Source: Apostichopus japonicus (Eukaryota > Echinodermata > Holothuroidea > Aspidochirotida > Stichopodidae). Taken from it: a stretch of 64,000 nucleotides of DNA. Each line of letters starts with the position of its first letter. Position 1 is the first letter of the stretch. The notes under the pieces were generated by a model. The model was not told the origin of the DNA. It was given only the letters and a program-made list of their open reading frames with translations, and ran no database searches. The DNA lies in the NCBI RefSeq assembly GCF_037975245.1, contig NC_092572.1, forward strand, positions 14,140,269-14,204,268, read 5' to 3'. The position numbers were made by a program, and so were the translations under genes. Below are positions 13,684 through 63,614 of this stretch, one piece after another.

Positions 13684-14152
13684 ACTCGTCAAAATGACAA
13701 AATTCGGAAAAAGACGTTTTGCCGAGCTTAACAACTCGTCAAAACGACAAAATTATTAAATTTGCCGAGATACAACAAGTCGTCAAACTGACAAAATTCT
13801 GAAAATTGACGTTTTGCCGAGATACAATAACTCATCAAAATGACAAAAATCTGAAAATTGACGTTTTGCCGAGATACAAAAAGTCGTCAAACTGACAAAA
13901 ATCTGAAAATTGACGTTTTGCCGAGATACAGCATGTCGTCAAAATGACAAAATATTGAAAATTGACGTTTTGCTGAGATACAACAAGTCGTCAAAATAAA
14001 AAAAAATCTGAATTTTAACGTTTAGCCGAAATATAACAAGTCGTCAAAATGAAAACAAAGTCTGAAAATTGACGTTTTGTTGAGTTACGACAACTCGTCA
14101 AAATGAGAACAATCTGAAAATTGACGTTTTGCCGAGATACAAATCGTCAAAT
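13684..14152 (+). repeat. Minisatellite, about nine units of about 51 bases
   Basis: Each unit carries a CGTCAAAATGAC-like box followed by GAAAATTGACGTTTTGCCGAG and ATACAA. Units vary between about 45 and 53 bases and have point changes. Within a unit, TCGTCAAAA and TTTTGCCGA/GACGTTTTG can partly pair, so the array could form repeated hairpins. It lies inside the 12827-17580 insertion. Confidence 0.85.
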
Positions 14153-14445
14153 CGTTACAAATGTAACATCTCCCTAAGGTAGTATGGTTTCTCTTAGCTG
14201 TTGGCGGCTTTGCTCATCACGAGCATTACTCTAGCCTAACTTAAAACTAACTTTTCCTAGCTAAGTAATACCTAGTTACATAATTGAAGGTCACATACTT
14301 TTACATGAAACTTTGGAAGGTACTAGCATAGTTTATACTTAAGTAGTTACTTTGCTACAAAGGACAAGGAGGGGAGGGGGGGGGGGTGAGTTTAGACCGA
14401 ATTACTAGAAAATCTGTATAGCAACCTTTAATACTGTCTTGTCAA

Positions 14446-20800: not shown

Positions 20801-21871
20801 AAGTTAAGCTTGTCTGTCGCGTTAATATAGTGTAAATTGCAATTAAAATAACACATTCAGTGCAAGCAGCTGACGTACAGTCTACACTGTGCTTACTTTG
20901 TTATCATCATAATGACGTCACATGCGATCATCATACAGTTTTTCGCGAAATGCCATGATTGTTTTTTTTTAAAAAAACACAGGTTTTGAATTTAAGATTT
21001 CCCAACATCGGATTGACGCCACGTTTCAGATATTTAAAATGGAAACCAACTAGAATAACCACTAGAATAACGTCAATAAAATCGTATTTTTTCGTTCATC
21101 TTTAAGTAATGGGCGTGGATGACTGGTAAAGCAAGCTTTGGTATTGGTTTCTTAAGCAAAGCCGACTATGTGGACTTGTGTCAGCTATTTCTTATTCAGA
21201 AGGTACTGTTTGAGACATCATTGACTAGATTGCCTCTGAAGAATCGTCATTCTACAAGTATATATTCACTATTCATAACGTCAGACCTCGTGACCTAGTG
21301 GGGACATCTGAAGCGTACATTAATACACAATCTTCACCACTTAGATCTTCCTATCTTTATAATGGCGTTTTCCGAAGCAGAGCGAGCCGTTTGAAAAAGA
21401 AAACATCCCATATATTAATTCCTTTGCTAGCAGTTGAATTATTCATGACTTAGTTCTGATAAATTGTTTACCACGCTGTAGTGTCAATACGACGACAGGG
21501 TTAGGGTCAGCTAGATTGTGTTTAAAATGAAACACAAACTAGCGATCTGTTGTCACGATAACTTACAATTCTTTGTATATCTGCAAACACGTGATTGTTT
21601 CTTTTGTTTTGGTTCTCTGGTACAAAATCAATAGAAGCCAGACTAGTACTATACAAGACCTGTCACGAAAGGGTAGTCTTTCATCAACATGACAGTGGGC
21701 TGCCTCCCTGCAAATTAATATTAATTAATATTACATTAATTGCTAAAATTGCTTGAGTTGTGCACTTCAGTGTCGGTGTACAGAATAAAACTCTTTAATT
21801 TTGAACAATAACGCAATTTGTAGTTTTTTATTTAGCGATTGATTAAGCCATGAGTTTGATTGGAAACTCAA
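17801..21871 (+). repeat. Segmental duplication, copy 2
   Basis: Direct copy of 1361-6160. It lacks the block equivalent to 2410-3200. At that junction (about 19121-19153) the stretch AAAATGAAATCTACCG occurs twice in tandem, a typical scar of end joining with templated filler. It also lacks the foldback element. Confidence 0.85.
19237..19891 (-). pseudogene. Candidate relic exons of the unrecognised gene (copy 2)
   Basis: On the minus strand 19891-19526 is open for 121 codons, ending next to a good donor-like TACG/GTACGT. The homologue of the other open segment (19437-19237) is cut short by an extra base near 19254 and by the 0.8 kb deletion. The intact and damaged segments are therefore swapped relative to copy 1. 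There is no ATG start and no recognised domain. The plus strand also shows an open stretch around 19550-19710, so the coding strand is unsettled. Confidence 0.25.
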
Positions 21872-22780: not shown

Positions 22781-25700
22781 TAAGCAGACATTCTGTTTAA
22801 ATGTTTGCTAAGTTTTTACAATATGCAATTCTCATGACTTTAATACTCACAAAGTTAACACTAACATGTTGAATACGGCAGAACACTGTTACTTGACAAA
22901 AGGGTACGTTTAACGTTACAGGTTTTCATTGGCAATCAATGTAACATGTTACTATGTACACGCACCTGAGATATAATTATCTGATTAGGGATATGTTTTA
23001 TAATATATTGTGCCGTGATGGTAAACATGTACTGATAAACATGTTCAGAACTACTGGTTTAACATTTTTGCGTCGTTTGTTTAATTGCTTAAATATAACC
23101 AATATTGTAAAGAACAAAAGCATAATACAATTTAATCAAGTTAGCTATGATAATTTTAATAGCTTCTCTTGTGTACAAAAAGTAATCTCTTCAGTTTGAA
23201 CTGGGATTAAAATTCTTACAGATGAGTTTAGCTAACACATTTATAGGGACACATTCTCATCATATCATATAAACAAATATTTCTATTATAAATATATTAA
23301 CAACATGTCCTTTCTCTAAAGATAATATATTTTGTACAACTATAAAGAAAATTAGATACTCATTGACAAATATTTGCAACCCTTTTACCCATTCCCACCC
23401 TACCAACCCACACATCCTCCCACGTATCCCATCCTTCAACTGCTCCTACCGTAAATAACCCGTCTAACCCCTCCATGAATTAAATATTTTAATTTCAATA
23501 TTTTGTTTCATTTATCTGACGCATTAGCAATACACTGTTTACTTTCTAGTACTCAACATGTCTGTAATCTGGGAAAAATTTAAGGAAAATCACGTCAGTT
23601 GAAACAACGGGAAGTAGATCAAGATATCGACAGCCCTTCATGAAACTAACGGTGTACTAAATACATGAGTGCCTACTATAATGCCATAAACGCACTCAGT
23701 TAGTGATTGTTATTAAGGTTATTAAAATTACTAGCAATGTATACAAAAAAAAAACAAATATTGCTGCTTGACAAATGCATGAAACTGAAAACAAATTACT
23801 CAGTAACTTGAATATAAATAAACTTTGTTTTAATATTTTTTTAATAAAGTTTAAATAGAACGTTTTCCATGTAATACCCATATCATATGGTAAATTAATC
23901 GTTTATGAAAACGATCTCATCCTATTAAAACTGATTTGATAAGTTACAGCTATTATTTGAATGACTGATTCAAGAGAAGCAGTTTGACACTATAAACTAG
24001 ATGGTATCTTTATGACTCAACGTAATGGGCATACTTGTCGGGCCTATTACGGCATTACAGCAGTAAACTGAACTAATACTAGTATAAAAGAATATTTCAC
24101 TTCTTGCTGTTAAACATTTAATGCTTTCAGCAATCTTGCAGACATTACAGTTGATAAATAATCACCTCAGCAAGCATTTGACACCTTTGTAATAGATCCT
24201 AATTAGGTATCGAAACAAACTGCAATCAAATCAAGGAATTTTGTGTTTGGTCAGAATATTTTATTTTATTTGTTGAAGTAGACAATCTTCAGTGCCTAGT
24301 AGTTGTGGTATCTAAACCTAATAAACAATCCTCCAACGTTCAATAAAGATCAAGTACAATCCACTTATTTATCGATCTTTAGTGATTCGAAAAACAACAA
24401 TAGTAAACCTATCATGCCGTTTTTGCTTATGTCAATTTTGAGATGCCAGAGTGTTATAGTACAATGTAAATGTTCTAGTTAATTTGATCTATTTCTAATA
24501 AAGGTAAATGGTTATTTGATGAGGGTGTGTATTTTCCAATATTAGGACTGTACAGCCTTACTAATACAAATTATCCAGAACAGTTATGTTGGCCATTTCT
24601 TATAAAAATAGTGTGTTCCACTCTTTTCAAAAGTCTTCCTCTAAAGTCTGTATGTAGAATGCGACTATAAGAGTCGCCTTTGTTTGATCCCTTTTAATCT
24701 AACACAGAAAAATAAAATGTTAAAGTGATTTTATACATCACATTGTGGACTTATGATAAAGTTAAGGATGTCTAAACCTTTATAGTTTAAACCAGTGTGT
24801 ATGCTACTATCTATAATTACCGATATTGTAAAAGAACAAAAACATATACACAAACTAATACAGTATGATCACTGACTGAAAATAACAGTTTGAAAGTGAA
24901 ATCCTTTACCTGACTTTCTGGCAATGTGTAACCACTTTTGTGAGCAACATTCAGTGTATATAGCAAAGAGTGTGTGTTAATAAGCATCTAGTGAAACTTG
25001 TGACAAACCCAGATCATACCGAAGTACAGATTCAATGATGTAGTTATGAATAATTACCAAACAATTCCTTCAGACTGCACTTATTAACGAAACTAATTGA
25101 GTGTTTTCTTGTAAGGAAAACCTACGTAAAAGTAATTACAATTCGTATATAAGACCCTGAGCCGGTAATTACTTAAAAAAGCAACAACTAAAATCCATTA
25201 AAGACATATACGCTTGGTGTGAAATGTTCTATCATACTTGACTTGACTTCATTCTGTTAAAACACAGGTTCAACACTTATTAAATGGAGACACAAATTTT
25301 TTTCTTACTACTTATGATTCCCTTTGTATGTTCTAAATGCGGCATCAGTACAACAGGTGATGTATAAGCGTACTTTTTTCTTGAATATAGAATTTAGTTA
25401 GCTTTGACTAAATGTAAAATCGATAAAAGCTGATCGTCTTGTCAAGACTTTATAATGATACTCATGCAATAAAATGAGAAATGCAATTTATACTTCAATG
25501 ACGATAAATATCATTTCATCACATAGCCTACTCGATCAATTATTGAAGCTTATCAGGTTTCTTAAAATGACTATGGCATATTTTGTTAAAATCAAGCACA
25601 TACATTCATTAGTTTTAAAGATTTCCAAATGGAACGGTGAAAATACATTTTGTAGCATTTACTCAAGTTTATAAATTATCATGGAGCTCTATTTTAATCT

Positions 25701-26600
25701 ACCACTGCCAAATGCCACGGGGCGACCCTTAGAACTTTATGTAGTATCGCAGAAATAGGCAGAAATAAAATAATAATGAATGTATTGCGTGTAGTTTTAC
25801 AGAATGTCAATCCTTAAAGCTTTAAAACAAATTGTTCTTGCTATTTTGTTGTTAAACTTTTTATTCTCTAATCATATTTTTATCCCATTTTCTGTTGCTG
25901 GGAGGTGGTTCCATTTGGTTTATCAGTATATAGTATAGTACGGTAACTGGCAGGCTACATTAACATCAAGAAACGTTAATATCCGTAGTACAAAGTAGTC
26001 TTAAAAAATGTCGAATCTCTTACACCATTGTGAGCAAATTGGAACTTATCTTCCGTATTAATCAGGTATAAGTTACGTATATTGTTAAAATATATCAGCC
26101 TTGCTGCATATACGTATGGATTTTCTATGATATTAGCATAAGAATGTGGTTATTGTTTATATCTTCAAGTTATATGAAACTACCGTTGTATTAAGCCACA
26201 CATGCACTTATATTACGCAAATGTTAGATATACGTTTTTCAAATGGAATAATTGTTAAATGTCTGCAGAGGTGTATTTTAAAATTTTTAGACTATAGCAG
26301 CTTTGAAGCCGAATGGTGCCGTGTTTGCCAGATGGTTCAACAAATACCAGGAAAAAAGATAATTACATTTCTGGGACTTTACAATAAGTCATGAGGGATA
26401 CATCAACTTACTTCGTTACAGGTGTTGTAATTTTTCTTTAAAAAATAATAGATGCGACTCTAGGTGCAATCTGTTGCTCAATCATATACAACGTTTGACA
26501 GCGACATGTTATTGCCAACTTAACACTTTGGTTATATGCACAAACAATTTCCAATGAAGCACTTGTTGCATTATTGAAGGTTTGTTCATGTTAAACTGCT
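22780..26600 (+). repeat. Tandem copy of the gene 1 unit (5' flank to kinase region), degraded
   Basis: Blocks of this interval match 28690-37330 in the same order and orientation: 23270-23640 with 29100-29430, 24370-25283 with 30200-31133, then the signal exon, the Ig1 exon remnant, the intron before the first kinase exon, and one kinase exon. The interval is shorter because of internal deletions. Confidence 0.75.
25284..26391 (+). pseudogene. Dead partial copy of the Ig-receptor pseudokinase gene
   Basis: A signal-peptide exon (25284-25356: MET then a leucine/phenylalanine-rich core, with donor CAACAG/GTGATG) closely matches exon 1 of gene 1. About 330 bases on, an Ig1-exon start is recognisable (25670-25760), but its acceptor is destroyed (ACCAG became ACCACT) and the exon is truncated. 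A deletion then joins into the intron ahead of the kinase. The kinase exon with the QMV..(M/I)P....FLGL pattern is retained at 26290-26391 with a TTTTAG acceptor, but its donor reads TCATGAGG instead of TCAGGTAAG, giving a stop. Ig2-4, the membrane span and most of the kinase are gone. It could at most make a short secreted peptide. Confidence 0.8.
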
Positions 26601-31133: not shown

Positions 31134-31206
31134 ATGGAGGTACCAATAATTATCTTACTACTTATGTTTCCCTTTGCATATTCCAAATGCGGTAGCAGTA
31201 CAACAG
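31134..31206 (+). CDS. Gene 1 exon 1: signal peptide
   Basis: ATG starts a 24-residue leader with a hydrophobic core ([13 protein letters not shown]) and ends phase 1 at CAACAG/GTGATG. The same exon is present in the dead copy at 25284-25356, which supports this start. Confidence 0.85.
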
Positions 31207-34200
31207 GTGATGTATGAGCTTTCGTTTTCTTTAAATATAAAGTTTATTTAGCTTCGACTAAAATGTAAAAACAATGTATACAAGCTTTTCGTCTAGTGAA
31301 TACGTTATTATGATATTCGTGCAATAATATCAGAAACAATGCATATTTCAATTAATGAAGCTTAACCCATTTCCCCGCATAGCCTTAAAGAACAGTTATA
31401 GAACTAGAAGTATAAAGCTATATAACTAATATATTATTTTATTAAAAACAAATCAACTTGAAATAACAACAGCCTATCTTTCTTTTAAATCAGTTTTATA
31501 TCGTAACAAAGAACATGATATAAAGGTCACATGTCTTAATATAACTGGAGCATATAAGTTAAACTCATGCAAATGCATTAAATAGTTGAAATGATTTCCA
31601 ACTGGACAGGTAAAAATGTATACCTTTTGTTGTATTGTCAGTACAAGTTATGTTCCATATTATGAATTATCGTTGAGTTTTAATTTTAAACTACCAGTGT
31701 CAAATGCCATGAAGACCTGTAGAACTTTTTGTACTGTCGGTTCAAAGGCAGAAATAGAGTTTGTCTTTGACACATCTTGGTCGGACTACTCAGTGGTTTG
31801 GAAACAGAATAGCAAATCTCTCATGAGACATGATGCAAGATCATCTCTGATACTGAGAGAGGGTTGGAAATACACATCAACGCTATCCACCAGTGGCACC
31901 CGAGCAAGGTTGGGAATCAGTGATGCAACAATTGGTGATGCTGGAAGTTACTCTTGTATCAGGTACCCGACTATACATGGAGTCGTAGAGACAAAAAGGT
32001 GTTACCTCTTCCTGCAAGGTATGTGACAGTTAAGATACAATACCTTGAATAAAGTTTAGGAAAGTAATGACGACCATATTGTAAAAATATACGGTACGAT
32101 CGAACAAATCTAAGTAATATCACGACTTTATTGCCACGAATAATTTTGTATTTCAAACTCTCAACTTGTGTTGTACACCATAACTGCTATAACAATTGTT
32201 ATACCGTTCATCATTTCAAATGTGTTATTGCAAGAGCAAAGTAATACATCGTAGACAATGCTTCATAGGTTATAGCAATTGCTGATTTTTTCGGTCTTTA
32301 ATGACACTTCTCAACTATTTAAACTTCTCAGGCTTGATGTGATTGGTTAGGAAAAACAATTGAAAAAAAAACCCCGTCGCATACTATATATTCAAAATAT
32401 AAACCATCAGTGGAAACAATGTGAAATCAAGTCTTATCTGATACAAATTACTGCTTTTAAACAAAAAAAGCTGATATATCACTGCTTGCTTTAATTTCGG
32501 TACACAGGTCCCGTTACGGTAACCCTACATACTATTCCAGAAGAACACCAAAATATGACACTTGAGTGTTGCGTGACGTTTTCGGAACTGTGGAGTTCAT
32601 CGACAATATCTTGGATATTTGATGATGGCATTTCAAGTCTACCTTTTGGTTCTTGCGTTTCAACAGAATCCACCGAAACATCAATGTGTAGCAATATTAC
32701 TTTTATAAGTCGGCGAAGTTACCATGGAAAGAATATGAAATGCCTAATCCGAAATCAAGTTAACGCTTCTTCCAGTGCAAATATTGTTGTCTTACGTAAG
32801 TTTATAATACAAGTATTGATGTTAATGTTGGGTTAAGAACTATTAATGCGGGCAATTCATATGTTGAATGAAGTGTCCCTATTTAAATGGAAATTTGTAA
32901 CAAAAGCAGGTGAAGTATATCCGTCTTACCATTTTACAAAGGCAGTCGTTCGCGCTCGTAACACACGCCCAATTACGCATCTAATGCATGCATGTTGTAG
33001 CCTGGACAAGAAGTCAAAGTTAATTCCTTAAACATACTCTGTTACTCTATTGCTTTAATAAGCTTGTTTTAACGTTACAAGTTCTGTGGTTTACATGGAT
33101 TTGCTCATTTGTCTTTATTTAGTTTATATATACCGTAAATATGATCGTTTGACTCTTTACTGATGTGATATATCAAGCGTCATAATCATATTGTCAGTCA
33201 CTATACATTGTTTTGGTTTTAGTACGTCCAATGCATGCAGTTACCATCCCATCCCCCCCCCCCCCCGCCCCCACTACCGTTGTACTCTAAACATGGTTCA
33301 AATGTAACTTCAAATATCGTAATTTTCATTGCAAGTTTACTATTTATTGGCAACTTCTGGCTTAAAGGACAATGTTGAGTACTCACTCGGGCAAATAAGC
33401 AATTATCTTGGATTGAGCGGTATATCCAGCTATGATAACGTTAATCTACGAAATGAAAACAAAATGAGATATTTACATCTTCTTGTAAGAATTCCAAAAG
33501 TGTTACGTTGACATTATGAATCCCAGATATAAGTATTATAATTTTCATAATTTTTTGTCTGGTATCTAAGTGCATATTTTGTGTATGCTAGTTGTTTTCG
33601 CAGCACACAGTTTTTTAAAACAGATTTTTTATATAATATTCTTGTTTTGGCGTTACAGATCCCGCTTCAAATGTTAGGCTTACTTCCAGTGCCTCCAAGC
33701 GGTTGTTTCTTCAAGAGAAAAACGATCGCATTAACCTGACATGTTCTTCAGATGGATATCCAACGCCTACGTTCATCTTACAACAGTTTCTATCGGAAAA
33801 GGGTTGGCAAAATATGTCGACGATAGGGAATATTCCAGAAGAAGGCTTGGCAATTACTAAGTGTATTTTCCACAACGTTGCTATAAGCCAGAACATCACT
33901 GTATTTCGATGTTTATCCTGCAACGGATACAATGGATGGGCATTGAGTGGAGAGTTGATCATTGAAAAACCGTGTAAGTTCAGTTTCGCTTCACCAAACA
34001 GTTTTAAATAAGATGTAGATTTTGCTATTGTTATATCCATTTTTCGTCTCTGTCTTTGATTTGGAACTCTGTGGTGTGATAATGCAGGTGGCACCAATCA
34101 CTTCATTGCTTCAACTCTAATAAACCCAAATTTATTTCCTTTTCTTTAAAGTCATATTTCATCACCATGTAGACATTATTGTGAATCTCTTTAGCCTAAT

Positions 34201-37200
34201 CCTTTGAAATGTTTGTTTATGAATAGATCCTGCGCTCGTGAATGTAATTACACCACATGCATTAGAGATTAAAGAGAATGAAGATGTACTCATTAGATGT
34301 AAAGCGACGGGCAATCCGACACCAGTGGTAAAATTACAGCGGTTAAGCGATTTATACGAATGGCAAACACTTCAACTTGATGCTCAAAACCAGTCACTTA
34401 ATCCAACGGTCTGGGAATTTCAACTTCAGCACCACAAAATTCGCCATGTAGAAGAATTCAGATGTATTGCGCAAATAACTGGTAGGGATAATGCTATCAG
34501 TGAAATAGTTTTCGTGCGTAATGGAGGTGAGTTCGTAAAAAAATACAGAGCAAGTATCCTGGACATAATTTGTTCAATTTAACATTTACAATTATCCTCC
34601 TCGGCTCGTTTATCATCTTTGTGTACTTAAATATTAGGCAAGTTAAATTCATTTGTTCAACGTGTTCTACTTTCTCATCGGCTTAAAATGTAGCTGTAAA
34701 TATACAGTTGCCATATTTATTTCCAATTTAATATCAGGATGTTTCTTTTTGGATTTTTTTTAGAAAGGAAACATATGTCATTAGGGTTGGAGTAAAATGA
34801 TTCTAGATGAATAATACATCTTGTATACATTTAAATGTATTTCCACTTGGTTTCAAAGGTGCAGAAGGTAGTACTGAGAGCATGGTGATTTTCATCTGTT
34901 GTGGGGTCATCCTTGTCATGGCATTATCTATGTTCATAAAGAGTGAGTAAGTTCGTAGGTTAGTTTATGATGTTTATATCAATGATTTACTAACGGTAAG
35001 TCTACTAAACGGTAATAATTAACGAATACACTACAAGTCACGTATTCATATCAGATGCGAACACATTTTAATATCAACTGTACAGTACTTTAGTGGGTGG
35101 GGTGGGGGGGGGGGTTAGGGGAATGGCTTGAATAGTTTAGTTCTCTTTGTATTTAGAACTTTTAACATAATTTAAATTTGAATAATTCCTTACAAAGTTT
35201 TTTTGGAGTTTGTTGTGTATACGTTATTTTATGTACTCAATGTAATCAGAGATATTAGTTAGCCTTGTTGTTATTATGAGTCATTGTCAGTGTTTTTTTA
35301 TTTAGTAGGCAGTGGACTCTAAATACAATTGTATTAATTAACTGTTTATAACGTATGTAAACTATATTACAGAGGGTGTCCGGTTATGTAAATTCTACGG
35401 GTGTAGTTGGTGAGTAGTATCTACATTTTTATTATGTACAGTAGCTTTCATTAAATGTGTTTGATAGATCATAGAACCATCATAGTTAACATTGAACAGT
35501 ACAAATCAAAGGTTTATTATTTCTGGACACACAAACCAAGGTACAGTATTGATATGTTACAGTTTCATGGTTGGAGACGAACGTGTTTATTGTAATAACA
35601 ACAAATAAGTTCCTCTTTAAATCCATTTATTAAGAAGAAATATGTGTGTAGAACAGGTAAATATAACAAAACAGAATCTTACAAGTTTTCATATTATCAA
35701 AATTCTCACTAATGAACAACTGCGAGTTTTATTCCAATAACGCTGACATTCGCTTTCGCCTTTCTATTAACCTTTAATTCAGGAATTAAATACATGAAAG
35801 AATCCAGCCTGGGCAACATAATTAGTGATTAGAGATTAACAGAAAAGTAAATTTGGAAAGATTAAGCTGTGATAAATTTCTGATAACAGCTTTACCTGCA
35901 ATTCAGTATGTCATACCGAAGCAATGAAGCACGCAGGAAAACTGTAGGTTGCTTTTAAGACAGCCAAGTAATTTCCTTTGGAAATTTTCACACAATTACA
36001 GTTGCAAACTTAATTGTAGTCTGTTTCGGAACCAATTTGTAATATCATTACTTTAAGTTTTATCCAACTCAAAAAACACATATTTATCTCACCTAAGTTT
36101 CAGTTGCGTGATTGTGATCGTGAGATTAATGACTGATGATATATGATTACAATCGTCTGTAGCTCTTTTCAATGTATATCTCACACTCAGGCAGCTGTCC
36201 TTATCTAAATCAGCAGAATATGACCTTGGTAAGTGAAAGAAACCGTAATATTTACCGTTTAAAACATAGCCTTCTAACTTTGATAATTTAGAAAACATAA
36301 AATAAAGCATATCACCAACATTTTCTGCTGTTAAGCTTATTTATTCTCCAATGAATTAGTTATCTTCTTCGTGCGTTGGGAAGTGGTTCCATTTGGTTTA
36401 CTACACTATGGCAGAAGACAGGTACTGCAATGTTATATTTACACCAATGAACTTTAATATCAGTTATAGTAAAATATATCGAACAGTTGCATATATGTAA
36501 ACTTGTACTTTCATTTCAGAGTTAGATAACCTGCACAGCGGAACCGTCACAACATTTTCACAAACAGATATGGTATTTTCACTTCTGCTGAAGGAAGGAA
36601 AATTCAGGCACCGGTGGATAGGAATTTTCAAAAAGGGAACAGATGGTCAAACCAAAGTTATTCTATCGACTGCCGGAGGTAACCGTGTAATATAAAGCAC
36701 AATAAACTTTATCAGTGCCTTTTCTCTCTCTTAATTTCGCATCTTGGGATACTATTATTCACTCTTTAGTGATGTGTAATCTTACAAAAAGTTTGGACCT
36801 TTTCCACCTTTTGCGCGATAGCAACTTATTTATATTTATCAAGTATTATTATTATTATTTTTTTAAATGTTTAAATTGTATACACATATCAGTCTTGCTC
36901 ATAAAACAAATGAGAGGTGCATAATACTAGCACCTCTGTTTGGCTGTTGTGTCAAACCTAGAATTTTGTTTTCATATGAAACTAACGCTATACCAAGTTA
37001 AACATGCATTTTCATTTCAAAAAGTAAATTAAACCTTTTTGTAATGGAACTGATTATTAAGTGTGGGCCAAAATATCTGCAGTGATTTCTCTTTAAATTA
37101 TAAGATTACAGCGGCTGTGAAGCTGATTGGCGTCGGGTTTGCCAGATGGTTCGAGAAATGCCAGACAACGAGAATGTTGTTAAATTTCTAGGGCTTTGCA

Positions 37201-39842
37201 CAAAGTCAGGTAAGATACAACCAACTTATTTTCTGATGTTCTGATCTTTAAACAAATTAGTTGGATGTGGCTTCAGGTTCAGTCTGTTGTGCAACCATAT
37301 GCAAAGTGTGACATTGACATTTTATTACCAACTTAACGCTCTGATAATAGCTTGTAGCAATGTTCCAGTTGAAGCTTTCTTTTTTAGATTATATAATGTA
37401 TCGCTCTGTTACAATGTCCATATCATCATTTAAAACAAATCATACACTTTAATACGATCTTAGTAAGATCTTTTAATCACATTGCAAATTTAGTCAAATT
37501 CGGTTCATAATCTCATATTTGGAATGAGCATATGACAGTGGAATGTAAAGTTTTTAGTGTTTGTAATATTTATAATCGTGTAGATATAACAATTGATTTC
37601 TGCAGATACAGTTTATTGTGTTCATGAACATTTGGCATACGGTACTGTCCGTACTCTACTGGGAAAGGACTATGGAAGAAACATGGTACAGGGAGAACTA
37701 AATGGAGGAGTCGCACCTTACTATTTCTTCCGATTTGCTCTTTGCGTCGTTCGTGGAATCAAGTTTCTGCACCAATATCACTGGATCCATCCTGGACTAT
37801 GTATTGACAAGTTATTGCTTACGGCGAATAATAATTCCTGTAAATTGTACAACTTTTGCCATTCAGCGGTCAAAGATCTCGAACCGAGAGCAGATGTAAG
37901 CCCGTTTTTTGTTGCTGGCATTTTAATATATCATCACTTATTGTGTAGTACAGTTATCTATATCTCCCGATACATTTCGTAGCACATTCCGTTTTAAGCG
38001 CACACTTACCTACATGCTGGCTGGTTGTCTGTATCGAGTATTTCAATGCTGGCCGTTACACATCAGTTATTACGATGACGAAGCACTTTACGAAAATGAT
38101 GGGACGGTCGTAAACGGAACATTGCCTTGAATTAGTCTAAGGAAACGGATGCATCGAGTACTAGTTATGTTTCAATCGAAATATTTAATGGACGATGACT
38201 TGATACCCTTATGTTGTTGGCCTGAATATTAATAGTATACAAATTGTTGATAAACTAATTAATACATGATTATGAAACTTTGCATAAACAACTGAGCACC
38301 CTCCAATGAAACTGAATACTATTTTTGTTTAAATATGATCATACAAAAACCACGAGGACATCAAATGTTATGCATTTCAGTTGAGAATTGTTAAATAGAT
38401 ACAGCTTGAACTAACAACAGTACATTAAAGTATCATAACATAAAGTAAATTACAGTATACCTAACAAAGCAGTTGACAAGAAAGTAGATTATTTAGTTAG
38501 AATAAGTACTTCAACCAAAAGCAAGAATATACATTTGTTTGCTAAGCAACCGGAGATTTTGACTATACGACACCTTTCCAGTTCAAAAGAGCAGAAAAAA
38601 CTTACGTGGTTAAATAATACTAATAATTCACTGTTGCAATTAATTTCCATTGTCTGATTTCTTTGCTTCTTCTATTGTGTCATAGGTTTCTACTTCCTTC
38701 GTTCCGTTGTATTTTCCCCCGGAACACATCGGGAAGAGAGTGTATACAAAGAAAAGTGATGTTTGGGCTGTGGGAGTTGTGGTATGGGAAATATTCTCAT
38801 ATGGTAGGTTAACGGCTCTACCGGTAATTCCTATTCATTGGCATAAGCTCTACATATCTTCGTGTTTTCTTTATTTTGCCAAGAACCTGTTTAAAAAAGT
38901 TAATACATTGCAATGATCGATTGCAATTATATAATACCATGATTAGACGTGATTGACGTGATATTGACGTGATTGTTTCAGTTGCATACTGTAAGTGAAA
39001 AAAAAAATGTCCTTCAATATTGTATGGATTTAAGAAATATATGCAATTAGAATGAGCTTATGTTTATTCACGTTGTATTCTCCACAGGAGTTCTGCCGCC
39101 CACCCATGCTGATGTTCGTTCTCGTGTTGATGTGTGTAGGAATCTGAAGAAGCCAAGCAGATGTCCAGACAAAATGTTAGATTTAAATTAAAACGGTGGT
39201 TAAACTGTTTATTTCATTAAACAACTTATAAATTAATCAGTTTTCCATCTTCAAGGAATTGCTTGTTTATTACTCTAGAATAGAATTTAACACCTTTCTG
39301 TAGACCATCAGCTCCAAACTATCTCACTTTCAAGTATTAACGTAGCTATATGTATAGCCTTATCGAGATGGCTTAACAAAATGAGATTAGTATATATATA
39401 TATATAATAAAAAAATGTGTAAATTAGTATAATATGTAATTGCTCCATTTATAGATACTCCGCAGCCAGTGAATGTTGGCACTTTAACATAAACTTGCGT
39501 CCAAACCTTGAGAGGTTGGAAGAGTGCTTGGAGGAGGCTTTCGATGATCACCAGAAAATCCATAGTAATGAAGTAAGCGGAATTATGTACGCATTTCAAT
39601 GAATTAAGTTACCGGAGGTGAATATTATCAATGACGAATCTGAACCATTTGTACTTTCGGGTTTCTCTTATGTTATCGGATTTAGTTTGTATATAATTTA
39701 AAAACGTTCTATTTACCATTGTCATGATTGTAAAATTGTCATTATTTTCCATTTGAAACAGGCTTTCTATGATATACCACAAGTGGAAGTCGAAGGTGGA
39801 TACAAATGTTATGACAATGTTTACGATCGTCAAATCTTATAG
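31134..39842 (+). CDS. Ig-domain receptor tyrosine pseudokinase (gene 1, full span)
   Basis: Thirteen exons join to 2340 bases (779 residues plus stop) with no lesion. Order: signal peptide (1-24), four Ig domains (about 25-131, 132-227, 228-332, 333-432), membrane span (about 440-458), kinase-like domain (about 480-740) and a short tail. The C-lobe is clearly tyrosine-kinase-like (PPE..., [20 protein letters not shown]...LRPNLE), but the active site is lost. The VAIK lysine is Ser510, HRDLAARN reads HPGLCIDK from residue 610, DFG reads NFC at 631-633, and the glycine loop is degraded. It should bind a ligand outside the cell and act inside as a scaffold or by pairing with an active kinase (inference). 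All junctions through the first kinase exons are phase 1. The next gene, 47215-57805, shares the ectodomain. The introns hold nothing recognised. Confidence 0.85.
31698..32018 (+). CDS. Gene 1 exon 2: Ig domain 1 (V-like)
   Basis: The acceptor is CTACCAG and the donor CAAG/GTATGT, phase 1 to 1. It shows the core Trp (VVWKQ) and the DAGSYSC motif of strand F. The strand-B cysteine expected in IxCxF is phenylalanine (IEFVF), while two extra cysteines (CRTFC) sit just upstream. The canonical disulfide is therefore absent or rearranged. Confidence 0.8.
32508..32795 (+). CDS. Gene 1 exon 3: Ig domain 2
   Basis: Flanked by TACACAG and CTTAC/GTAAGT, phase 1 to 1. It has CCVTF, ISW, a CSN segment, RRSYHGK and KCLIRN. 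The same landmarks are found in exon 3 of gene 2, which identifies the two as direct counterparts. Confidence 0.85.
33659..33973 (+). CDS. Gene 1 exon 4: Ig domain 3
   Basis: Flanked by GTTACAG and CCGT/GTAAGT, phase 1 to 1. It shows INLTC in strand B and FRCLSC in strand F. The core tryptophan position carries Leu-Gln (FILQQ), as in the matching domain of gene 2. It contains several N-glycosylation sequons (NLT, NMS, NIT). Confidence 0.85.
34227..34526 (+). CDS. Gene 1 exon 5: Ig domain 4
   Basis: Flanked by GAATAG and GGAG/GTGAGT, phase 1 to 1. An I-set-like pattern is visible: [22 protein letters not shown] instead of a Trp, WEF and EEFRCIAQ. Confidence 0.85.
34859..34942 (+). CDS. Gene 1 exon 6: transmembrane segment
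   Basis: A short exon between TTCAAAG and AAGA/GTGAGT encodes a short acidic-polar spacer, then about 19 hydrophobic residues ([17 protein letters not shown]), followed by lysine. This gives a type I topology. It joins in phase 1 directly to the exon at 36520. Confidence 0.85.
36520..36678 (+). CDS. Gene 1 exon 7: juxtamembrane and kinase N-lobe
   Basis: The acceptor is TCATTTCAG and the donor GGAG/GTAACC. It encodes a degraded glycine loop ([12 protein letters not shown]) and strand b3 as TKVILSTA, where a kinase would have VA(I/V)K, so the ATP-anchoring lysine is serine. Only one reading frame is open and it fits phase 1. Confidence 0.8.
37105..37209 (+). CDS. Gene 1 exon 8: kinase N-lobe, helix C to strand b4
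   Basis: It encodes [20 protein letters not shown] and then [10 protein letters not shown] chose the acceptor TATAAG at 37104 because the nearer ATTACAG at 37111 breaks the frame and because the dead copy uses the same boundary (TTTTAG/AC TAT AGC). The donor is TCAG/GTAAGA. Confidence 0.8.
37606..37895 (+). CDS. Gene 1 exon 9: kinase hinge to activation segment
   Basis: It covers hinge ([14 protein letters not shown]), helix E ([13 protein letters not shown]), the catalytic loop as [11 protein letters not shown] and the DFG site as LYNFCHS. Both the catalytic aspartate and the metal-binding residues are missing. It ends in phase 0 at GAT/GTAAGC. Confidence 0.85.
38686..38803 (+). CDS. Gene 1 exon 10: kinase C-lobe
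   Basis: It encodes [18 protein letters not shown] followed by [13 protein letters not shown], the APE and helix F region typical of receptor tyrosine kinases. The acceptor is CATAG and the donor ATG/GTAGGT. The structural core is kept although catalysis is lost. Confidence 0.9.
39088..39175 (+). CDS. Gene 1 exon 11: kinase helix G region
   Basis: It begins [10 protein letters not shown] and ends RCPDK. The donor AAAAT/GTTAGA is weak, but it restores the frame exactly to the next exon, giving [14 protein letters not shown], which matches the RTK pattern CP..LY.LM..CW. Confidence 0.75.
39455..39572 (+). CDS. Gene 1 exon 12: end of kinase domain
   Basis: It encodes [25 protein letters not shown], the helix H/I end of a tyrosine-kinase fold with the RP dipeptide kept. 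The acceptor is TTATAG and the donor GAA/GTAAGC, phase 0. Confidence 0.85.
39762..39842 (+). CDS. Gene 1 exon 13: tyrosine-rich tail and stop
   Basis: The acceptor is GAAACAG. The 26-residue tail has four tyrosines, in YDIP, YKCY, YDNV and VYDR contexts. YDNV matches a YxN Grb2-type SH2 site and YDIP an YxxP-type site, so the dead kinase could be a substrate and docking platform (inference). It ends with TAG. Confidence 0.8.
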   Translation, partial: AFYDIPQVEVEGGYKCYDNVYDRQIL

Positions 39843-47293: not shown

Positions 47294-50200
47294 GTAAGGA
47301 AACGAAAATCATTAATACATTTTATAGTGATTCGTCTCATATTCTTTTTAAAACTTAGGTAATGGAATGGACACAATCGAAGTAAAATAATCAATGGAAA
47401 CTTACCGTTGATATAATACCACCAAAAGTTGTATATCTTATGATATGATTTTCCCCTCTCAGTTCTATTGATCCTGATATCAATTCTGTTCAAAGTTTTC
47501 AAGCTACTAACTGCAAGTATTATGATTATAATTTCTTTCAAGATATTACCAACGATTTATGGGATCAGAAACTTACCTTGTATCATGTGAATGCTAGGTC
47601 TCTGAATAGTAACTTTAATAATTTATTATTATCACTAAGATCCGTTAGGCATAATATTTCTGTTATCGGTATAACCGAGACCTGGCTTGGTAATCCTAAT
47701 ACTTTACATACTCTCTACAACATCCCTGGGTATAATATGGAACATGCCTCTAGGCAAGGGCGTGGTGGAGGGGTCGCACTATATATCAATTCATCTCTTA
47801 AATACAAATCTCGTTCAGATTTGAGTATATTTGTAGAAGGCGTATTTGAGTCGACTTTTATAGAACTACAGGCTTCTCATTCGCCAATCATCATAGGGGT
47901 TATTTATTGCCCCTCCGGTGTTAGCGAAACTGTGCTTGACATGTTCTCTACTTTATTTATTTCATTGAATCGAGAAGACAGGAGTTGTTTCTTAATGGGC
48001 GACTTTAACTGTAATCTCTTAATTACATCGGAAAACATCGGTAATCAGTTTATCAACCTTGTACACTCTCACTCTTTTCGTCCACTCCACAATTTGCCTT
48101 CTAGGATAACGTCACACTTTGCTACACTTCTTGATGTAATTTTCACGAATAGTCCATCACTGTCATCTACCTCGGGCATAATTTGTGACGACATTTCGGA
48201 TCATTTCCCTGTTTTTACTATTGTTGACATTGACAATGTTAAAACTAGTATTCCGTCAATTACTTTAAGGAGGCACGTTAATCCAGCAACTATACGGTTA
48301 TTTCGGTCTGCTATTGAAAACGAAACTTGGCAAGATGTCTTTTATGGCAATGATGTAAACGTTGCATTTGATCAGTTTAATAAAATATTTAGTTAGCATT
48401 TAAACAACTGTCTTCCGTATGTTCCTAGTACAAAGAAGGGTATTAGTGACAAGAATGACTGGATGACTCCTGCCATCCTTAATTCTTGCCGTACAAAGAA
48501 TCGTCTATATAAAAAATATCTCCGTAGCCGTACTGCAAACAACTTGAACGACTACAAATGTTTTCGTAATCGTCTTACGTCTGTTATCAGGCTGGCCAAA
48601 AAGTCTTACTACACCAATATGTTTAATAATAACAACCAGGATGCGAAAAGTATGTGGCGGTCAATAAATACCCTTTTACATGGTCGACAAGCTAATCGCA
48701 CTCCTGAACAGATTAATTATCAGGGGGTCAGTTTTTCTAATCCATTGGATATTGGAAACATTTTTAATGATTATTTTACTACTATTGGTCCAGCCACTCA
48801 ACATAAGATTCCTAATGTTAATTCTCACTACAAAATGTACCTGCAAGCACCAGTCATTGACTCTTTATTCATTATTCCTGCAACAAGAGATGAGGTCCTT
48901 AAAGTACTTCTATCACTCAAGCCATCCGCTGCTGGTTTTGATGGTGTTTCTGCTATTATTGTAAAACATGTTGCCCATTCATTATGTATTCCACTCACAT
49001 ATCTTTGTAATCTCTCTTTTGAGCTTGGTGTTGTCCCCACATCTTTAAAAATAGCTCGAGTTGTTCCTGTCTTTAAGGCCGGTGAAAAGGAATCCGTGAA
49101 TAATTATAGACCCATTTCAGTTCTCCCATGTTTCTCCAAGGTAATCGAAAAAATAATGTTCTCACGGTTATATAACTTTATTGCTAAGCATAATTTACTG
49201 TATAACTATCAATTTGGTTTCCTTCCTGGCCGCTCAACTACACATGCTATTTTACATTTTACTTGTAAAGTTATGGAAGCTTTCGAAAATAATCAGTATG
49301 CTTCTGGTATATTTCTGGATCTTTCGAAGGCGTTTGATACCCTTGACCATAACATTTTACTTGAAAAACTTAGTCATTATGGAATCCGGGGAACTGTACT
49401 TCAGTGGTTCAAAAGCTATCTTGCTGATCGTCACCAGTTTGTTGTTATTAATAATATAAATTCTGTTTCTAAGCCAATTAAGTGTGGTGTTCCTCAAGGG
49501 TCCATACTTGGTCCATTGTTGTTTATAATTTATGTTTAACATATATTAACTTAATGACCTCTATAGAGCCAGCAACAAATTTCATATAATCTCTTATGCT
49601 GATGATACCAACCTGTTCTTTTCCAGTAATGACATTAATTTTCTATTGGATACTATACAGAATGAGTTTACATATATTCATGATTGGTTTTGTGCAAATA
49701 AATTGTCACTAAATGTTAAGAAAACTACCTCTATTGTGTTTAGTACACCTTCAAAGCACTTAAATCCTAACATTAATAGTATCAGACTTTGCGGTGTTGA
49801 TGTTATGCTGTCTAAGACTACTAAATTTCTTGGGGTTTATATAGATAATCATCTTTCTTGGAAAAATCATATTCAGAATATTTGTATGAAAGTGTCTAAA
49901 GGCGCTGGAGTTCTTAATAGACTTCGCTAAATCATTCCCAGAAGCACATTGGTCACTTTGTATAATACACTCATACTTCCCTATCTTACATATTGTAATG
50001 TTATTTGGGGCAGTACCCATGCCTCTAGAATTCAACCCGTTTACTTACTTCAAAAGAGAGCCATTCGTTATATTTGTAATGCGGATTACCTCCAGCATAC
50101 AGCACCCCTGTTTACTACTCTTAACGCTCTTAGTATCTATGATATAAATCGTTACTATGTTGGTATTTTTATTTTCAATTGGTTACATGATAATGCTCCG

Positions 50201-53200
50201 TCGACTTTTCGCAACTATTTTCAGTTACGTAACGATCCTTATCCCAACCGTGCGCCAAATCAATTGACTGTTCCTTACTTTAGACTTAGGTCTGCACAAC
50301 TTGGTATTCGCTATGTCGGCGTAAAACTTTGGAATTCCCTCCCTACTACTATTACTGGTTGTAAAACTCTGAACACCTTCAAAAAACGTCTTAAAGGGTA
50401 TCTTATATCAAACTATCATTGATTTTGTATTTTCCTTTCTTTGCCATCTTTGTTCTGTTTTCTCTGTATACTTAAGCTTTCTTTCTATGTTTTATTTGTA
50501 AAGGGGTGTCAACGTAAACAAGCTCTGCAGAGCTTCTTGTTGGCACTCATCAATCTCTTGTTCTCTTGTACATTTACCCACGTCTATTGTCATAATTGCA
50601 TACTTTAATGCGAGAGATTGAAATAAAGTCTTATGAATTGACTTGAATTGAATTGATGATGAGAATATTTCATTCTAACATTTGATTTCAGATTCTTCAA
50701 AAATCAAGACGACAGGAGAAAACGAGAGATTGCAACTGGCTTATATTGGTTCCTCGGCAAAGATTATTTGCTCTTTCGAAACATTTCATGAGCATGATGT
50801 AGTACAATGGTCACACGGAGAGAAAATGGTAATAACTGACCAACCATTCATAAATGAGGAGGACAGTATTTATTCAACGGAAAGAATTGAAACCACAGCT
50901 TCACTTATAATTAAAAATATTAGGTATCATGACGGAGGAAATTACAAGTGTAAACAAATTACAAGCGCAGGAGGACAATGGGTGGTCCATAACTGGCTGT
51001 TAATAATACAAGGTGAGATATATCGCATAATGTGCAATCTATAGTTTTCCAAATCTAAACCTCTCCAGTTACTAACATAATTTCAAAAATTAGTGTAAAG
51101 TTTAATTAAAGGTTTCATTTAAACTACAACAAAATCACATACACTACAACTCTTTGAGTGATGTTTTCGAACCTATTCCAGTTACTACTTTAAGATTTAC
51201 AAAGCAGTTTCATTTCTTTTTCAGATGGACCATTCTTGGAATCAATTGCAACGGTAATGGAAAATGAATCTATATCGGCGACATGTTGTGTAGAATTTTC
51301 ACACGCCGTTGATCACGTAAAATATCTTTGGTCGATTGATATTCCAATATTCACAACAAACAGAATCAGCAACACAGTTGCACCCATAGTTCATATTTGC
51401 AGCAATGTGTTAATTGCAGCAAAACGAAGCTATCACAACAAAATGTTGGAATGCACCATAGCAAACGGACTCAATGTTTCCAGCTACAGGCGTGTTAAAT
51501 TTATGTGTAAGTAACAGTGTAAAAGGGAAATATTTTTACCGAACATTTTTTCTGCATCTATTTCATCTAGTTCATTCTCGATTTTCATTCATTCTGTCAA
51601 TGCTTTCATTTTCTTCGTTTCCATTACAACTTACAGACCCCGCCACATCAGTATGGAAATCTCCAACGACTCCATTAATTGTTGAAAATAACACTTACAT
51701 CAATATAACATGCTTATATGATGGATTTCCGCCTCCTAATATTACATTGCAAAAGTACAATGCTGATTTAAAAATGCGATGGATCAATACAAACTCCTTT
51801 CCTGAACCTGTTAGACGAAATGATACACATATCACAGTAACGTTTCTGTACTACTTCTCAAGTGAGAACTCAAGTGAGAGGTTAAGATGCTTTGCTTCAA
51901 ACAACATGTCAGACATTCAAGGCGACCATGGAGTTCTCGTGGAAGCATTCAGTAAGGATGTTATTCGTTTCGTAAATATGTGTCCTTGGAAATTGTTAAA
52001 ATGGAATGTTAGATTAGGATGCACTTGATATCAAGTTTGCTTAAACATATGTAGCTTATCAAGGTATATTTATTATGTGGTAAATTAAAGGAAAATGCAA
52101 GCCTTACCATTGTCTGAACGTTGATTTAATCTGACATTATTGTAATAATGTGGGTAGTGTGGGCTGAAGAGGTTTTTGGTCGTAACGTTACTAAGGGATA
52201 CATAGGGATTGCCTTTATAACATATGTCGTGAACAAGTTCCGAACAAAACAATGACTTTTGTTGAAGAGTCCAAACTGCCACAATAAGGACAAAGAGAAG
52301 TGGCAGTGTAACACCAAACTGGAAAATGCATGCCAGAAACGAGTTTTATACTCTGACACCCCCCCCCCCTCTCCCTCTTTCTCTCTTTCTCAAAGTATAA
52401 ATATAATTTTGGGAAGTTGCAGACTATCATGACTATCATATTAATAAAATATATTAGCTAGGGGTTTCAACTCCTGTAAATTTAAACAAACATTAAGCAA
52501 GAAGTAATTACGAATAACATCACAGCATGCATGTATCTAGCTTAGCCTGTATTCAACAAGTCAAATTAATGTATAAACAGCCAATTCCTTTGTGTCACTA
52601 ATGCTTTGCAACAGTAATAAGTTATATTTACTATCGTATTTAAGCCTGGCTTTTCTTAACATTGTCCAGTCCCAGCAACGGTTGTGATATTGTCCGGGCC
52701 ACGGTACAGCCATATGGGTGATGACATAGCGATAACGTGTGCTAGCTATGGTCGTCCAACGCCAGACGTTTCCCTACAAAAGAATGTTGTTGGCCAATGG
52801 GAAACAGTGAATGAAGTGTCACCTACTAAGAATGCTACCACCAATCCACTCCAGCTCATATGGGAATTTCGTCTGGTAGTGAACAGTGCTAATACGGGAG
52901 AGTACAGATGTCACGCCAATAATACAATAGACACTTTTGATGATAGTAGTGCTTTACCTGTAGAAATTTTAAGTAAGTAATGGTTATTTGCACAATTGTC
53001 TTTTTCAATGGTTATTTGCACAATTGTCTTTTTCAATATATGAAGTGCATTTCTTCAATATATAATCTGCATATTAAAAAATCTTCATAAATTGTCTCTT
53101 CAGCCAGTCCGCATAATCTCGAAAGGCTCTTCAAAGCACAACTTTGTTTATATGTTCAAAGAATATCTCAAGAAGAGCTTCCTAGTGAATTCAGTAAAGG

Positions 53201-62215: not shown

Positions 62216-62526
62216 TTCAACCAGCTCTTGCAAACTGGCCAGTATTCTCCATCGAGGAAGGTGGAACAGCAGTGGTGCTGTGTGTACCAAAAGGCGATGA
62301 GACGGCTTACTTCTGGAGTAAAGGAGAAGATTTTGCAACTAGCCAGAGCGTAGCGTCAAGAGTGCTTGGCATCCCTAGCTCTGATTTGGAGAAATATTCA
62401 GTGAATGAGGATGGTAGTCTCGTCATAAACAATGTTACCCTAGCAGAAGGGGAAGATATCATTGCAGAATTGTATCAGAAAATGCCAACTGTCGCGGGGC
62501 TGTGTCGATTGAGGTCACGGTGAATG
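62216..62526 (+). pseudogene. Gene 3 exon 2: Ig domain 1, frameshifted
   Basis: The acceptor is AATCTAG at 62215 (CAACCAG at 62224 would also keep phase). It shows GGTAVVLC, AYFW and GSLVINNVTLAEGED, then, after a one-base shift, YHCRIVSENANC and a strand-G SIEVTVN running into the donor AATG/GTAAGT. Confidence 0.65.
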
Positions 62527-62907
62527 GTAAGTAATGGTGTAAATTATGTGTACAGTGTACCACAGTACTGTAACTTTTAAGTAAATCTTGAAAACATACT
62601 TGGAAATATATGTACAAAATGAACATCATATTATAATAATCCTGTAAATAAATCATCCCTTATTGTTACCCTGTGGGTTATGGGTTTGTATGAACTGACT
62701 GCTGGTTGCACGGAGAATGCTCACAAAGAAATGATTGGTAGTGTATATTTTTACAGATTATTTTCGATTATTTATGGGCTCTAACTGGTTGTTACGTAAG
62801 TGTTGTGTGACACATTCAGTATTTGGTTTTTTCGAAAATTGCAAACAAACCTTCCATCATTGATTTTCTGTTGCATTTGTTATGTTCTTACATATACTGT
62901 TTTTCAG

Positions 62908-63244
62908 ATTTCACATTCGGAATCGAACAATGTGAACCAAGTGAAAGCTGTACTCTTCAAGTGGAGCCCTCTAAGAAAACCAAAATAACTTGTATGGCAA
63001 AAGGTGGCCCATCATCGTTATCTCTGAAATGGTTTAATGGTTCGAAAAGAGATGAATTCTGTTTCTAATGAACATCCCTTGAATGAAGAATCCAGTACAG
63101 TATCATAAAAAATTACGGTGCCGAAAGAGTTTGGATTACCTCTGACATGTGAAGCTGTTGCTAGTAAAGATGAACAAGCATGTGCAAGACTTGCCCATGT
63201 CAGACTGGATAAAACAGATATAGCTAAAGAACAAACAGATGCAG
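62908..63244 (+). pseudogene. Gene 3 exon 3: Ig domain 2, frameshift and stop
   Basis: The acceptor is GTTTTTCAG and the donor GCAG/GTAAAC. It shows CEPSESCTL, KITCMAKGG and LKWFNGS in one frame, then VSNEHPLNEES, the TAA, and FGLPLTCEAV..ACARLAHV in the next frame. Confidence 0.65.
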
Positions 63245-63447
63245 GTAAACTAAGGGCGTCTCCATCTATCCGTTCACCTATTAGTCTCCTCCCTAGATCC
63301 ATCCAGTCATATATCTGTCTGCCCAAACTGACTTTCTTTACTTGTTTATATGTTTTAAAAGTTTATGTTTACGTGTATGTCATATGTTTTCTATTTATGG
63401 TTATAAATGCAATGAGTCTATCGAACAAAAATGCTTTTTCTATACAG

Positions 63448-63525: not shown

Positions 63526-63614
63526 GTATGTAAAGTAAACTACCATAACTTACCAATACCTTTCACGAATGTCATTTTTACTAATTAATTTGTATATTTT
63601 TTCTTCACTTTTAG

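What the first reader, a model, noticed from the sequence alone, without database searches (positions are those of the whole stretch)
31134..39842. Receptor tyrosine pseudokinase with a four-Ig ectodomain
The kinase fold is kept (PPE, KSDVW...WEIFSYG, CW..LRP), but lysine, HRD-Asp, loop Asn and DFG-Asp are all replaced. The reading frame is intact over 779 codons and 13 exons, so selection appears to keep a dead kinase. Known receptor pseudokinases (for example ErbB3, PTK7, ROR-type proteins) signal as scaffolds or through partners. A lineage-specific four-Ig version beside a kinase-less twin looks undescribed, although I cannot search for it.
Basis: partly seen in the sequence, partly recalled or inferred. 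Interest (0 to 1): 0.85.

Follow-up and report, generated by a model that had tools for sequence, protein, structure and literature searches.

The report
Sea-cucumber dead-kinase receptor family
The gene is an intact cell-surface receptor whose enzyme part has lost its catalytic residues, and it belongs to a family of more than a hundred such dead-enzyme loci in this (probably sea-cucumber) genome, one of which seems already to have been published as an ordinary growth-factor receptor needed for gut regeneration.

Summary
Window 31134-39842 encodes an intact 798-residue Ig receptor with a tyrosine-kinase-like domain lacking the beta3 Lys, HRD-Asp, loop Asn and DFG motif; I model 15 exons, not 13. 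Two tandem copies, about 0.1 Mb up- and downstream, are equally intact; dN/dS of the kinase-like part is 0.30-0.37.

The gene is not a lone oddity. I read 131 loci of the same genome with this catalytic-loop exon. Of 128 readable, 127 lack the HRD-Asp (115 read HPG), 127 lack the Asn (118 Lys); none of 131 has DFG (120 DFC). Of 18 other tyrosine-kinase exons fetched as controls, 18 keep Asp, Asn and DFG.

Its 'Fgfr' and 'tyrosine-protein kinase receptor' expansions are in print, but I found no mention that they are dead. A published AjFGFR2 primer matches this genome once, in an Ig exon 0.35 Mb beyond the window, beside kinase exons that are also dead.

Most likely these are ligand-binding co-receptors signalling through active partners; that mechanism is inferred. 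Expression and orthologues elsewhere were not testable.

The parts
31134..31206 (+). exon 1: start codon and signal peptide ([17 protein letters not shown], read by eye)
   Evidence: identical in both tandem copies
31698..32018 (+). exon 2: Ig-type domain 1 (lacks the first disulphide cysteine)
   Evidence: by eye; single-exon fold uninformative
32508..32795 (+). exon 3: Ig-type domain 2
   Evidence: 0 changes in 288 nt in both copies
33659..33973 (+). exon 4: Ig-type domain 3
   Evidence: resembles Ig3 of paralogues
34227..34526 (+). exon 5: Ig-type domain 4
   Evidence: Ig_3 best stretch 341-414
34859..34942 (+). exon 6: transmembrane helix ([19 protein letters not shown], read by eye)
   Evidence: AG/GT and 0-1 changes in copies
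   Evidence: AG/GT and 0-2 changes in copies
36520..36678 (+). exon 9: N-lobe; glycine loop replaced by RHRWIG, VAIK -> VILS
37123..37209 (+). exon 10: alpha-C region (unusual AAG acceptor; the CAG acceptor 11 bases earlier shifts the frame into a stop)
37606..37895 (+). exon 11: hinge to activation segment; HRDLAARN -> [11 protein letters not shown] -> NFC
38686..38803 (+). exon 12: PPE ... [17 protein letters not shown]
39088..39175 (+). exon 13: C-lobe
39455..39572 (+). exon 14: C-lobe CW..NINLRP
39762..39842 (+). exon 15: tail with YDIP and [11 protein letters not shown], stop codon
   Evidence: NVYDR also in a 3' open frame of the L009 paralogue
25284..26391 (+). broken remnant of a related copy: exon-1-like and exon-10-like pieces only
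50730..52975 (+). related gene piece with four Ig exons, no kinase exon found after it in the window (limits approximate)

Best explanation
The gene is a receptor tyrosine pseudokinase: signal peptide, four Ig-type domains, one transmembrane helix, a kinase-fold domain that cannot catalyse phosphoryl transfer by the known route, and a tyrosine-bearing tail. It is one of three intact tandem copies and one of at least 128 loci of a pseudokinase family in the genome. Most likely mechanism (inferred): the Ig ectodomain binds a ligand, possibly FGF-like; the pseudokinase C-lobe, whose fold motifs are kept, pairs with a catalytically active receptor; the partner phosphorylates tail tyrosines (YDIP, YDNV, NVYDR), and these recruit SH2 adaptors toward ERK. 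Shown here from sequence: gene structure, loss of catalytic residues, family size as a lower bound, dN/dS below 1, and the match of the published AjFGFR2 ectodomain primer to a clade member. Inferred: ligand class, partner kinase, docking. My confidence is about 0.93 for what it is and 0.4 for the co-receptor mechanism.
For: Intact 798-codon frame in three copies, 14 of 14 introns with GT/AG ends in each. dN/dS over the kinase-like part 0.31 (A-B, one-sided Fisher p=1.4e-4), 0.30 (A-C, p=5e-4), 0.37 (B-C, p=0.05). Exon 11 differs by 2% between A and B, its flanking introns by 28% and 5%. Census: 127 of 128 readable loops lack the HRD-Asp, 127 of 128 lack the Asn, 0 of 131 have DFG; controls 18 of 18 keep Asp, Asn and DFG. 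By eye the VAIK Lys is absent and an RW.G motif present in 10 of 11 gene regions read, the N-lobe exon not being found in L088. 128 pseudokinase exons split cleanly from 15 kinase exons, support 0.996. By profile the nearest solved relatives are FGFR1-3 (59 of the best 60 rows shown, of 2209 matches; the first row is an EGFR construct). Exact and single match of the AjFGFR2 fragment primer at C12:14556332, with the paper's siRNA in the same exon at 2 mismatches. The paper reports co-precipitation of that Ig2-Ig3 fragment with AjFGF4, and lower ERK phosphorylation after siRNA (passages).
Against: No transcript, protein or binding data for the focal gene. Ligand and partner are extrapolated from a paralogue 42% identical to it over the kinase exons compared (L010). 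The siRNA and the forward primer of the AjFGFR2 paper are not found in this assembly with up to one mismatch, and the join of that Ig exon to the L010 kinase exons is mine, from adjacency and strand. Tail tyrosines were compared only in the trio and L009. In the wider family 18 close pairs give dN/dS 0.41 (0.26-0.72) on the loop exon, so constraint there is moderate. The three copies share history, so the three dN/dS values are not independent, and B-C alone is borderline (p=0.05).
Confidence: 0.5

Rival explanations
1. Decoy or dampening receptor: it binds ligand and forms dead heterodimers with active receptors, lowering their signal, in the manner of the kinase-less FGFRL1.
For: The key catalytic residues are gone; an Ig-only relative lies in the same window. 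Known decoy receptors are recalled, not tested.
Against: A pure decoy needs no kinase fold, yet the kinase-like part has a lower dN/dS than the ectodomain in all three comparisons (0.31/0.60, 0.30/0.46, 0.37/0.86; few ectodomain changes). siRNA to AjFGFR2 lowered, not raised, ERK phosphorylation in the paper (passage).
Confidence: 0.2
2. Diversified recognition receptors (immune or self recognition): many loci with varied Ig ectodomains on a shared non-catalytic signalling module.
For: At least 128 loci, many in tandem clusters, on several chromosomes; outside the trio the Ig4 matches are 23-41% identical, apart from one 41-residue remnant at 61%.
Against: The trio's first three exons are almost identical (2-3 changes in 682 nt), so no sign of ectodomain diversification between these copies; expression in immune cells could not be tested.
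Confidence: 0.15
3. The domain is catalytic by an unusual route (for example using the Lys that replaces the loop Asn and the Asp kept in DFC).
For: 118 of 128 loci carry Lys at the Asn position and 120 of 131 read DFC (the DFC count is biased by how 78 loci were found); such uniformity suggests the pocket does something.
Against: HRD-Asp, beta3 Lys and glycine loop are all gone; the focal trio has also lost the DFC Asp (N, N, S).
Confidence: 0.03
4. The gene is a decaying pseudogene or an assembly duplication.
For: A broken remnant lies nearby (25284-26391); the copies' first exons are almost identical, as haplotype copies or recent conversion would give.
Against: Three intact copies; introns from the third on differ by 4-28% between A and B, splice sites kept, dN/dS under 1.
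Confidence: 0.05

Closest known systems
A. japonicus 'Fgfr' expansion (Li 2018, PMC6018497) and 'tyrosine-protein kinase receptor' expansion (Zhang 2017, PMC5638244)
   Same: Our family is nearest to FGFRs by profile.
   Different: The passages I read treat them as FGF receptors and do not mention lost catalytic residues. Our count is at least 128 loci. Gene-by-gene identity could not be checked (supplements not available).
AjFGFR2 (PMC9890533)
   Same: Its Ig-fragment primer matches exactly one place, in an Ig exon followed by the L010 kinase exons; L010 groups, weakly, with the focal trio (support 0.598).
   Different: A different, more distant member than the focal gene; the paper reports three Ig domains and a 'conserved intracellular STYKc domain' (passage), whereas the kinase exons beside it here read RWSG / IHIS / CPG...K / DFC.
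Human receptor tyrosine pseudokinases HER3, PTK7, ROR1/2, RYK, EphB6, EphA10, STYK1
   Same: Receptor with a kinase fold and substituted catalytic motifs (Table 2 of PMC13259870).
   Different: None of the eight departs in every motif row of that table; EphB6 comes nearest and keeps the glycine loop. HPG...K and DFC are not in the table. In human they are eight genes of several families.
PTK7
   Same: Ig-only ectodomain plus pseudokinase.
   Different: Seven Ig domains, HKD...N and ALG; not among the 60 PDB rows shown for the family profile.

Membership tests
Protein tyrosine kinase fold (PF07714) | Profile match over the curated cut-off | tested here: met
   113.8 bits against 23.1; 4 of 4 spliced members match at E <= 0.001
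Active protein tyrosine kinase | VAIK Lys, HRD-Asp, loop Asn, DFG-Asp | tested here: not met
   VILS, HPG, K, NFC
Receptor tyrosine pseudokinase | Signal peptide, ectodomain, one TM helix, kinase fold with lost catalytic residues | tested here: met
   (sequence only; signal peptide and TM read by eye)
Receptor tyrosine pseudokinase | No phosphotransferase activity in an assay | not testable with these tools
   needs protein
FGFR family | Kinase-domain sequence nearest to FGFRs | tested here: met
   59 of the best 60 PDB rows for the four-member profile are FGFR1-3, after an EGFR construct; with the focal sequence alone EGFR, ABL1, FGFR4 and TrkB mix
FGFR family | Three Ig domains with acid box | tested here: inconclusive
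   four Ig-type exons, Ig1 atypical; acid box not examined
FGFR family | Binds FGF | not testable with these tools
   reported for the AjFGFR2 Ig fragment only (passages)
FGFRL1-type kinase-less receptor | No kinase domain | tested here: not met
HPG/DFC pseudokinase family of this genome (named here) | HPG-like loop, Lys or Arg at Asn, xFC for DFG, RW.G in the glycine loop | tested here: met

The most novel reading that the evidence does not exclude
A sea cucumber carries a large clade of catalytically dead FGFR-like receptors, descended from one ancestor that lost HRD, VAIK and DFG together. They carry FGF-to-ERK signalling in gut regeneration without kinase activity of their own, so that the published 'Fgfr expansion' and AjFGFR2 work describes pseudokinases.
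Probability: 0.35. Interest if true: 0.88.

Novelty: new variant of a known kind. Interest (0 to 1): 0.72.

Why it matters
Receptor pseudokinases are known as small sets of genes (eight in human). A clade of over a hundred loci with one shared set of catalytic losses outnumbers the strict HRDLAARN tyrosine-kinase loops of the same genome (78 exact CKLY[DN]FC hits against 30; each pattern counts only exact motifs). If right, reported FGF-receptor biology of sea-cucumber regeneration may have to be read as non-catalytic signalling, which is directly testable. It also gives a natural series of dead kinases for asking what a kinase fold is kept for.

Tried and rejected
Structure prediction: two single exons folded alone gave mean pLDDT 46 and 43, so no fold search was run and nothing is claimed from them. 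Rejected: that another exon choice restores the catalytic motifs; no plus-strand frame of the gene span holds H[RGK]D[LIV] or DFG, and the AAVK string is out of frame. Rejected: that the third copy (C) lacks its ectodomain, a first impression from L008; its signal-peptide, Ig and TM exons lie just upstream. A first motif tally mis-anchored some rows and was replaced. A first pooled dN/dS (0.55 over 25 pairs) mixed in distant pairs and motif-selected codons; one search replaces it (18 pairs; motif codons, L023 and L055 left out). In one search, 3 of 131 loci were unreadable (L023, probably a chance hit; L055 and L100, the open frame read there not reaching back over the loop). 78 of the 131 were found by the CKLY[DN]FC pattern, so the DFC count is biased by selection, but that pattern says nothing about HPG; the other 53 came by similarity to queries that themselves read HPG. 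The loci are exons, not proven genes. The 18 controls were picked by me from the 150 PF07714 matches, a profile that favours canonical kinases. The tree used 12 of these 18 plus three PDB segments; its columns include the motif residues; the line it prints for L009 is a leftover value and is not used. VAIK and RW.G in paralogues, and Ig domains of paralogues other than the window twin, were read by eye or by similarity to the focal gene.
Full report
What is in the window. Reading splice sites by hand gives 15 exons and 798 codons with compatible phases throughout: signal peptide, four Ig-type exons, transmembrane exon, two small juxtamembrane exons, six exons of kinase-like domain and a tail exon. 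Pfam scores the kinase region at 113.8 bits (PK_Tyr_Ser-Thr, residues 541-758) and Ig families Ig_3 and I-set above cut-off. The kinase profile is matched only from its position 48 on; the first strands are very diverged.

Catalytic residues. Against ABL1, FGFR4 and EGFR HRDLAARN reads HPGLCIDK and DFG reads NFC; against ABL1, VAVK reads VILS. The glycine loop reads EGKFRHRW. The alpha-C Glu has no convincing counterpart. PPE, SDVW and the CW..NINLRP arginine are kept, so motifs that hold the C-lobe together remain. No plus-strand frame of the gene span holds an HRD-like or DFG string.

Where it comes from. The whole genome is 671,581,487 bases in 35 contigs. A published Apostichopus japonicus assembly has 671,643,915 bases in 34 scaffolds, 23 chromosomes (passages of PMC10344927), and an A. 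japonicus primer matches exactly. I infer A. japonicus; the two totals are close, not equal.

Tandem copies. Two further copies lie on the same contig, from about 14.056 and 14.260 Mb, the focal gene being at 14.171 Mb. Both are intact over the same 15 exons, 799 codons with the stop, and 14 of 14 introns have GT/AG ends. The proteins differ at 48 (A-B), 19 (B-C) and 38 (A-C) of 798 residues. The first three exons are almost identical (A-B 2 changes, B-C 3 changes in 682 nt), while introns from the third on differ by 4-28% between A and B, so conversion or a recent exchange has touched the 5' part. For the kinase-like part dN/dS is 0.31, 0.30 and 0.37 (A-B, A-C, B-C; one-sided Fisher p 1.4e-4, 5e-4, 0.05); for the ectodomain 0.60, 0.46 and 0.86, with few changes. 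The comparisons share branches and are not independent.

A family. A search with the focal catalytic exons found relatives at 14.46-14.56 and 21.9-22.0 Mb. The four compared, 40-49% identical to it, show the same replacements: HPG (CPG in L010), Lys for Asn, KLYDFC. A DNA pattern for CKLY[DN]FC hit the genome 78 times against 1 for the reversed control. I fetched 72 of these (the other six were already in hand) and 52 more loci found by protein similarity (fetched in 47, 48, 62, 63). With copy C this makes 131. Of 128 readable loops 115 are HPG, 6 HPC, 2 HPA and one each HVA, HPF, YPG, CPG and HPD; the Asn position is Lys in 118, Arg in 8, Trp in 1, Asn in 1; DFG is DFC in 120 of 131 and never DFG. 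One search scored only 150 of 533 candidates, so the family is probably larger than counted. In 10 of 11 gene regions read by eye (the focal one and ten others) the glycine loop holds RW.G (R.RW.G in 6 of these 10) and the VAIK Lys is missing; in L088 I did not find the N-lobe exon.

Controls. From the PF07714 matches I fetched 18 other exons: 18 of 18 keep the Asp, the Asn and DFG; 10 of them read HGDLAARN, a second expanded kinase group. The strict HRDLAARN pattern finds 30 places. A tree of 128 pseudokinase and 15 kinase exons separates the two with support 0.996, and puts the focal trio with L010, L011, L012 and others, weakly (0.598). One ancestral loss is the simplest reading; some 40 residues including the motif itself cannot prove it.

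Selection in the wider family. 18 disjoint close pairs of the loop exon, with motif codons left out, give dN/dS 0.41 (bootstrap 0.26-0.72). An earlier pooled value of 0.55 over 25 pairs included distant pairs.

Nearest kind. A profile of four members finds FGFR1-3 in 59 of the best 60 PDB rows (2209 matches in all), after one EGFR construct; the focal sequence alone finds EGFR, ABL1, FGFR4 and TrkB. All four scan as PK_Tyr_Ser-Thr.

Literature. Li 2018 reports 38 'Fgfr' genes in A. japonicus against 4-13 elsewhere, the expanded ones mostly in a separate clade, mostly suppressed in aestivation and activated in gut regeneration (passages of PMC6018497). Zhang 2017 lists an expanded 'tyrosine-protein kinase receptor' family (passages of PMC5638244). 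A 2026 preprint repeats both (passages of PMC13228809). In these passages nothing is said of lost catalysis. Nine searches were seen as listings only, and 22, 23, 38, 51 and 81 showed a small part of their hits; among the rows listed no title or abstract start describes receptor pseudokinases of echinoderms. The echinoderm pseudokinase papers listed concern MLKL/RIPK and KSR3; the Venus kinase receptor paper (PMC3703292) holds both words and was not read. The sea urchin kinome paper of 2006 and the 2019 pseudokinase survey were seen only as references; the survey is not held. The held library lacks most subscription journals.

AjFGFR2. PMC9890533 (passages) cloned the Ig2-Ig3 fragment (81-431 aa) of AjFGFR2, reported co-precipitation with AjFGF4, and reported that siRNA lowered ERK phosphorylation and cell proliferation. 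Its reverse primer matches the genome once, exactly, at C12:14556332, inside an Ig exon; a transmembrane exon follows in L163 and kinase-like exons follow on the same strand in L010: RWSG, IHIS, CPG...K, DFC. The siRNA lies 202 bases upstream in the same exon with two mismatches and was not found anywhere with up to one; the forward primer was not found with up to one mismatch. So the published receptor, or an allele of it, most likely has a dead kinase domain. This rests on my joining of neighbouring exons, not on a cDNA.

How it may work. Human receptor pseudokinases bind ligand, and some pair with active receptors and are phosphorylated by them on docking tyrosines (PMC13259870: abstract, section 4 part 1 and section 5 read). 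The focal tail has YDIP and [12 protein letters not shown] and C differ from it only in GGYKC, which reads GGSKC. NVYDR also stands in a 3' open frame of the L009 paralogue. SH2 preferences for YxxP and YxN are recalled, not tested. Hence the co-receptor model is put first at about 0.4, decoy at 0.2, recognition receptors at 0.15.

What remains open. Expression, ligand, partner kinase, orthologues in other echinoderms and the structure. No other animal genome was available to search.

Noticed in passing
G000 C13, C17, C18, C19, C21, C22 (L131-L138, L147, L148): A second expanded tyrosine-kinase group with HGDLAARN in place of HRDLAARN but Asp, Asn and DFG kept (10 exons read); clustered matches.
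   Followed up: partly
L163 (C12:14556332) and L010: The published AjFGFR2 Ig-fragment primer lies in a pseudokinase-type gene of the focal clade.
   Followed up: yes
window 25284-26391: Broken remnant of a related copy, with an exon-1-like and an exon-10-like piece about 1 kb apart.
   Followed up: partly
window 50730-52975: Four Ig exons related to the focal ectodomain, with no kinase exon in the window after them.
   Followed up: partly
window 47449-50422: Non-LTR-type retrotransposon (endonuclease and reverse transcriptase by Pfam) interrupted by stops, directly before the Ig twin.
   Followed up: partly
window 3207-6090 and 19156-21838: A segment of about 2.8 kb duplicated 15.7-15.9 kb apart, pieces 87-95% identical.
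   Followed up: no
window 13709-14179: Tandem repeat with a 52-base unit.
   Followed up: no
window 62125-63533: Another Ig-looking gene by eye; Pfam finds nothing in the two open frames tested.
   Followed up: no
L162 (C12:14451562): An Ig4-like exon piece with stops, another apparent remnant of the focal type.
   Followed up: no
L124 and L038: Single family members that keep the HRD-Asp (HPD) or the loop Asn; possible reversals or relics.
   Followed up: no
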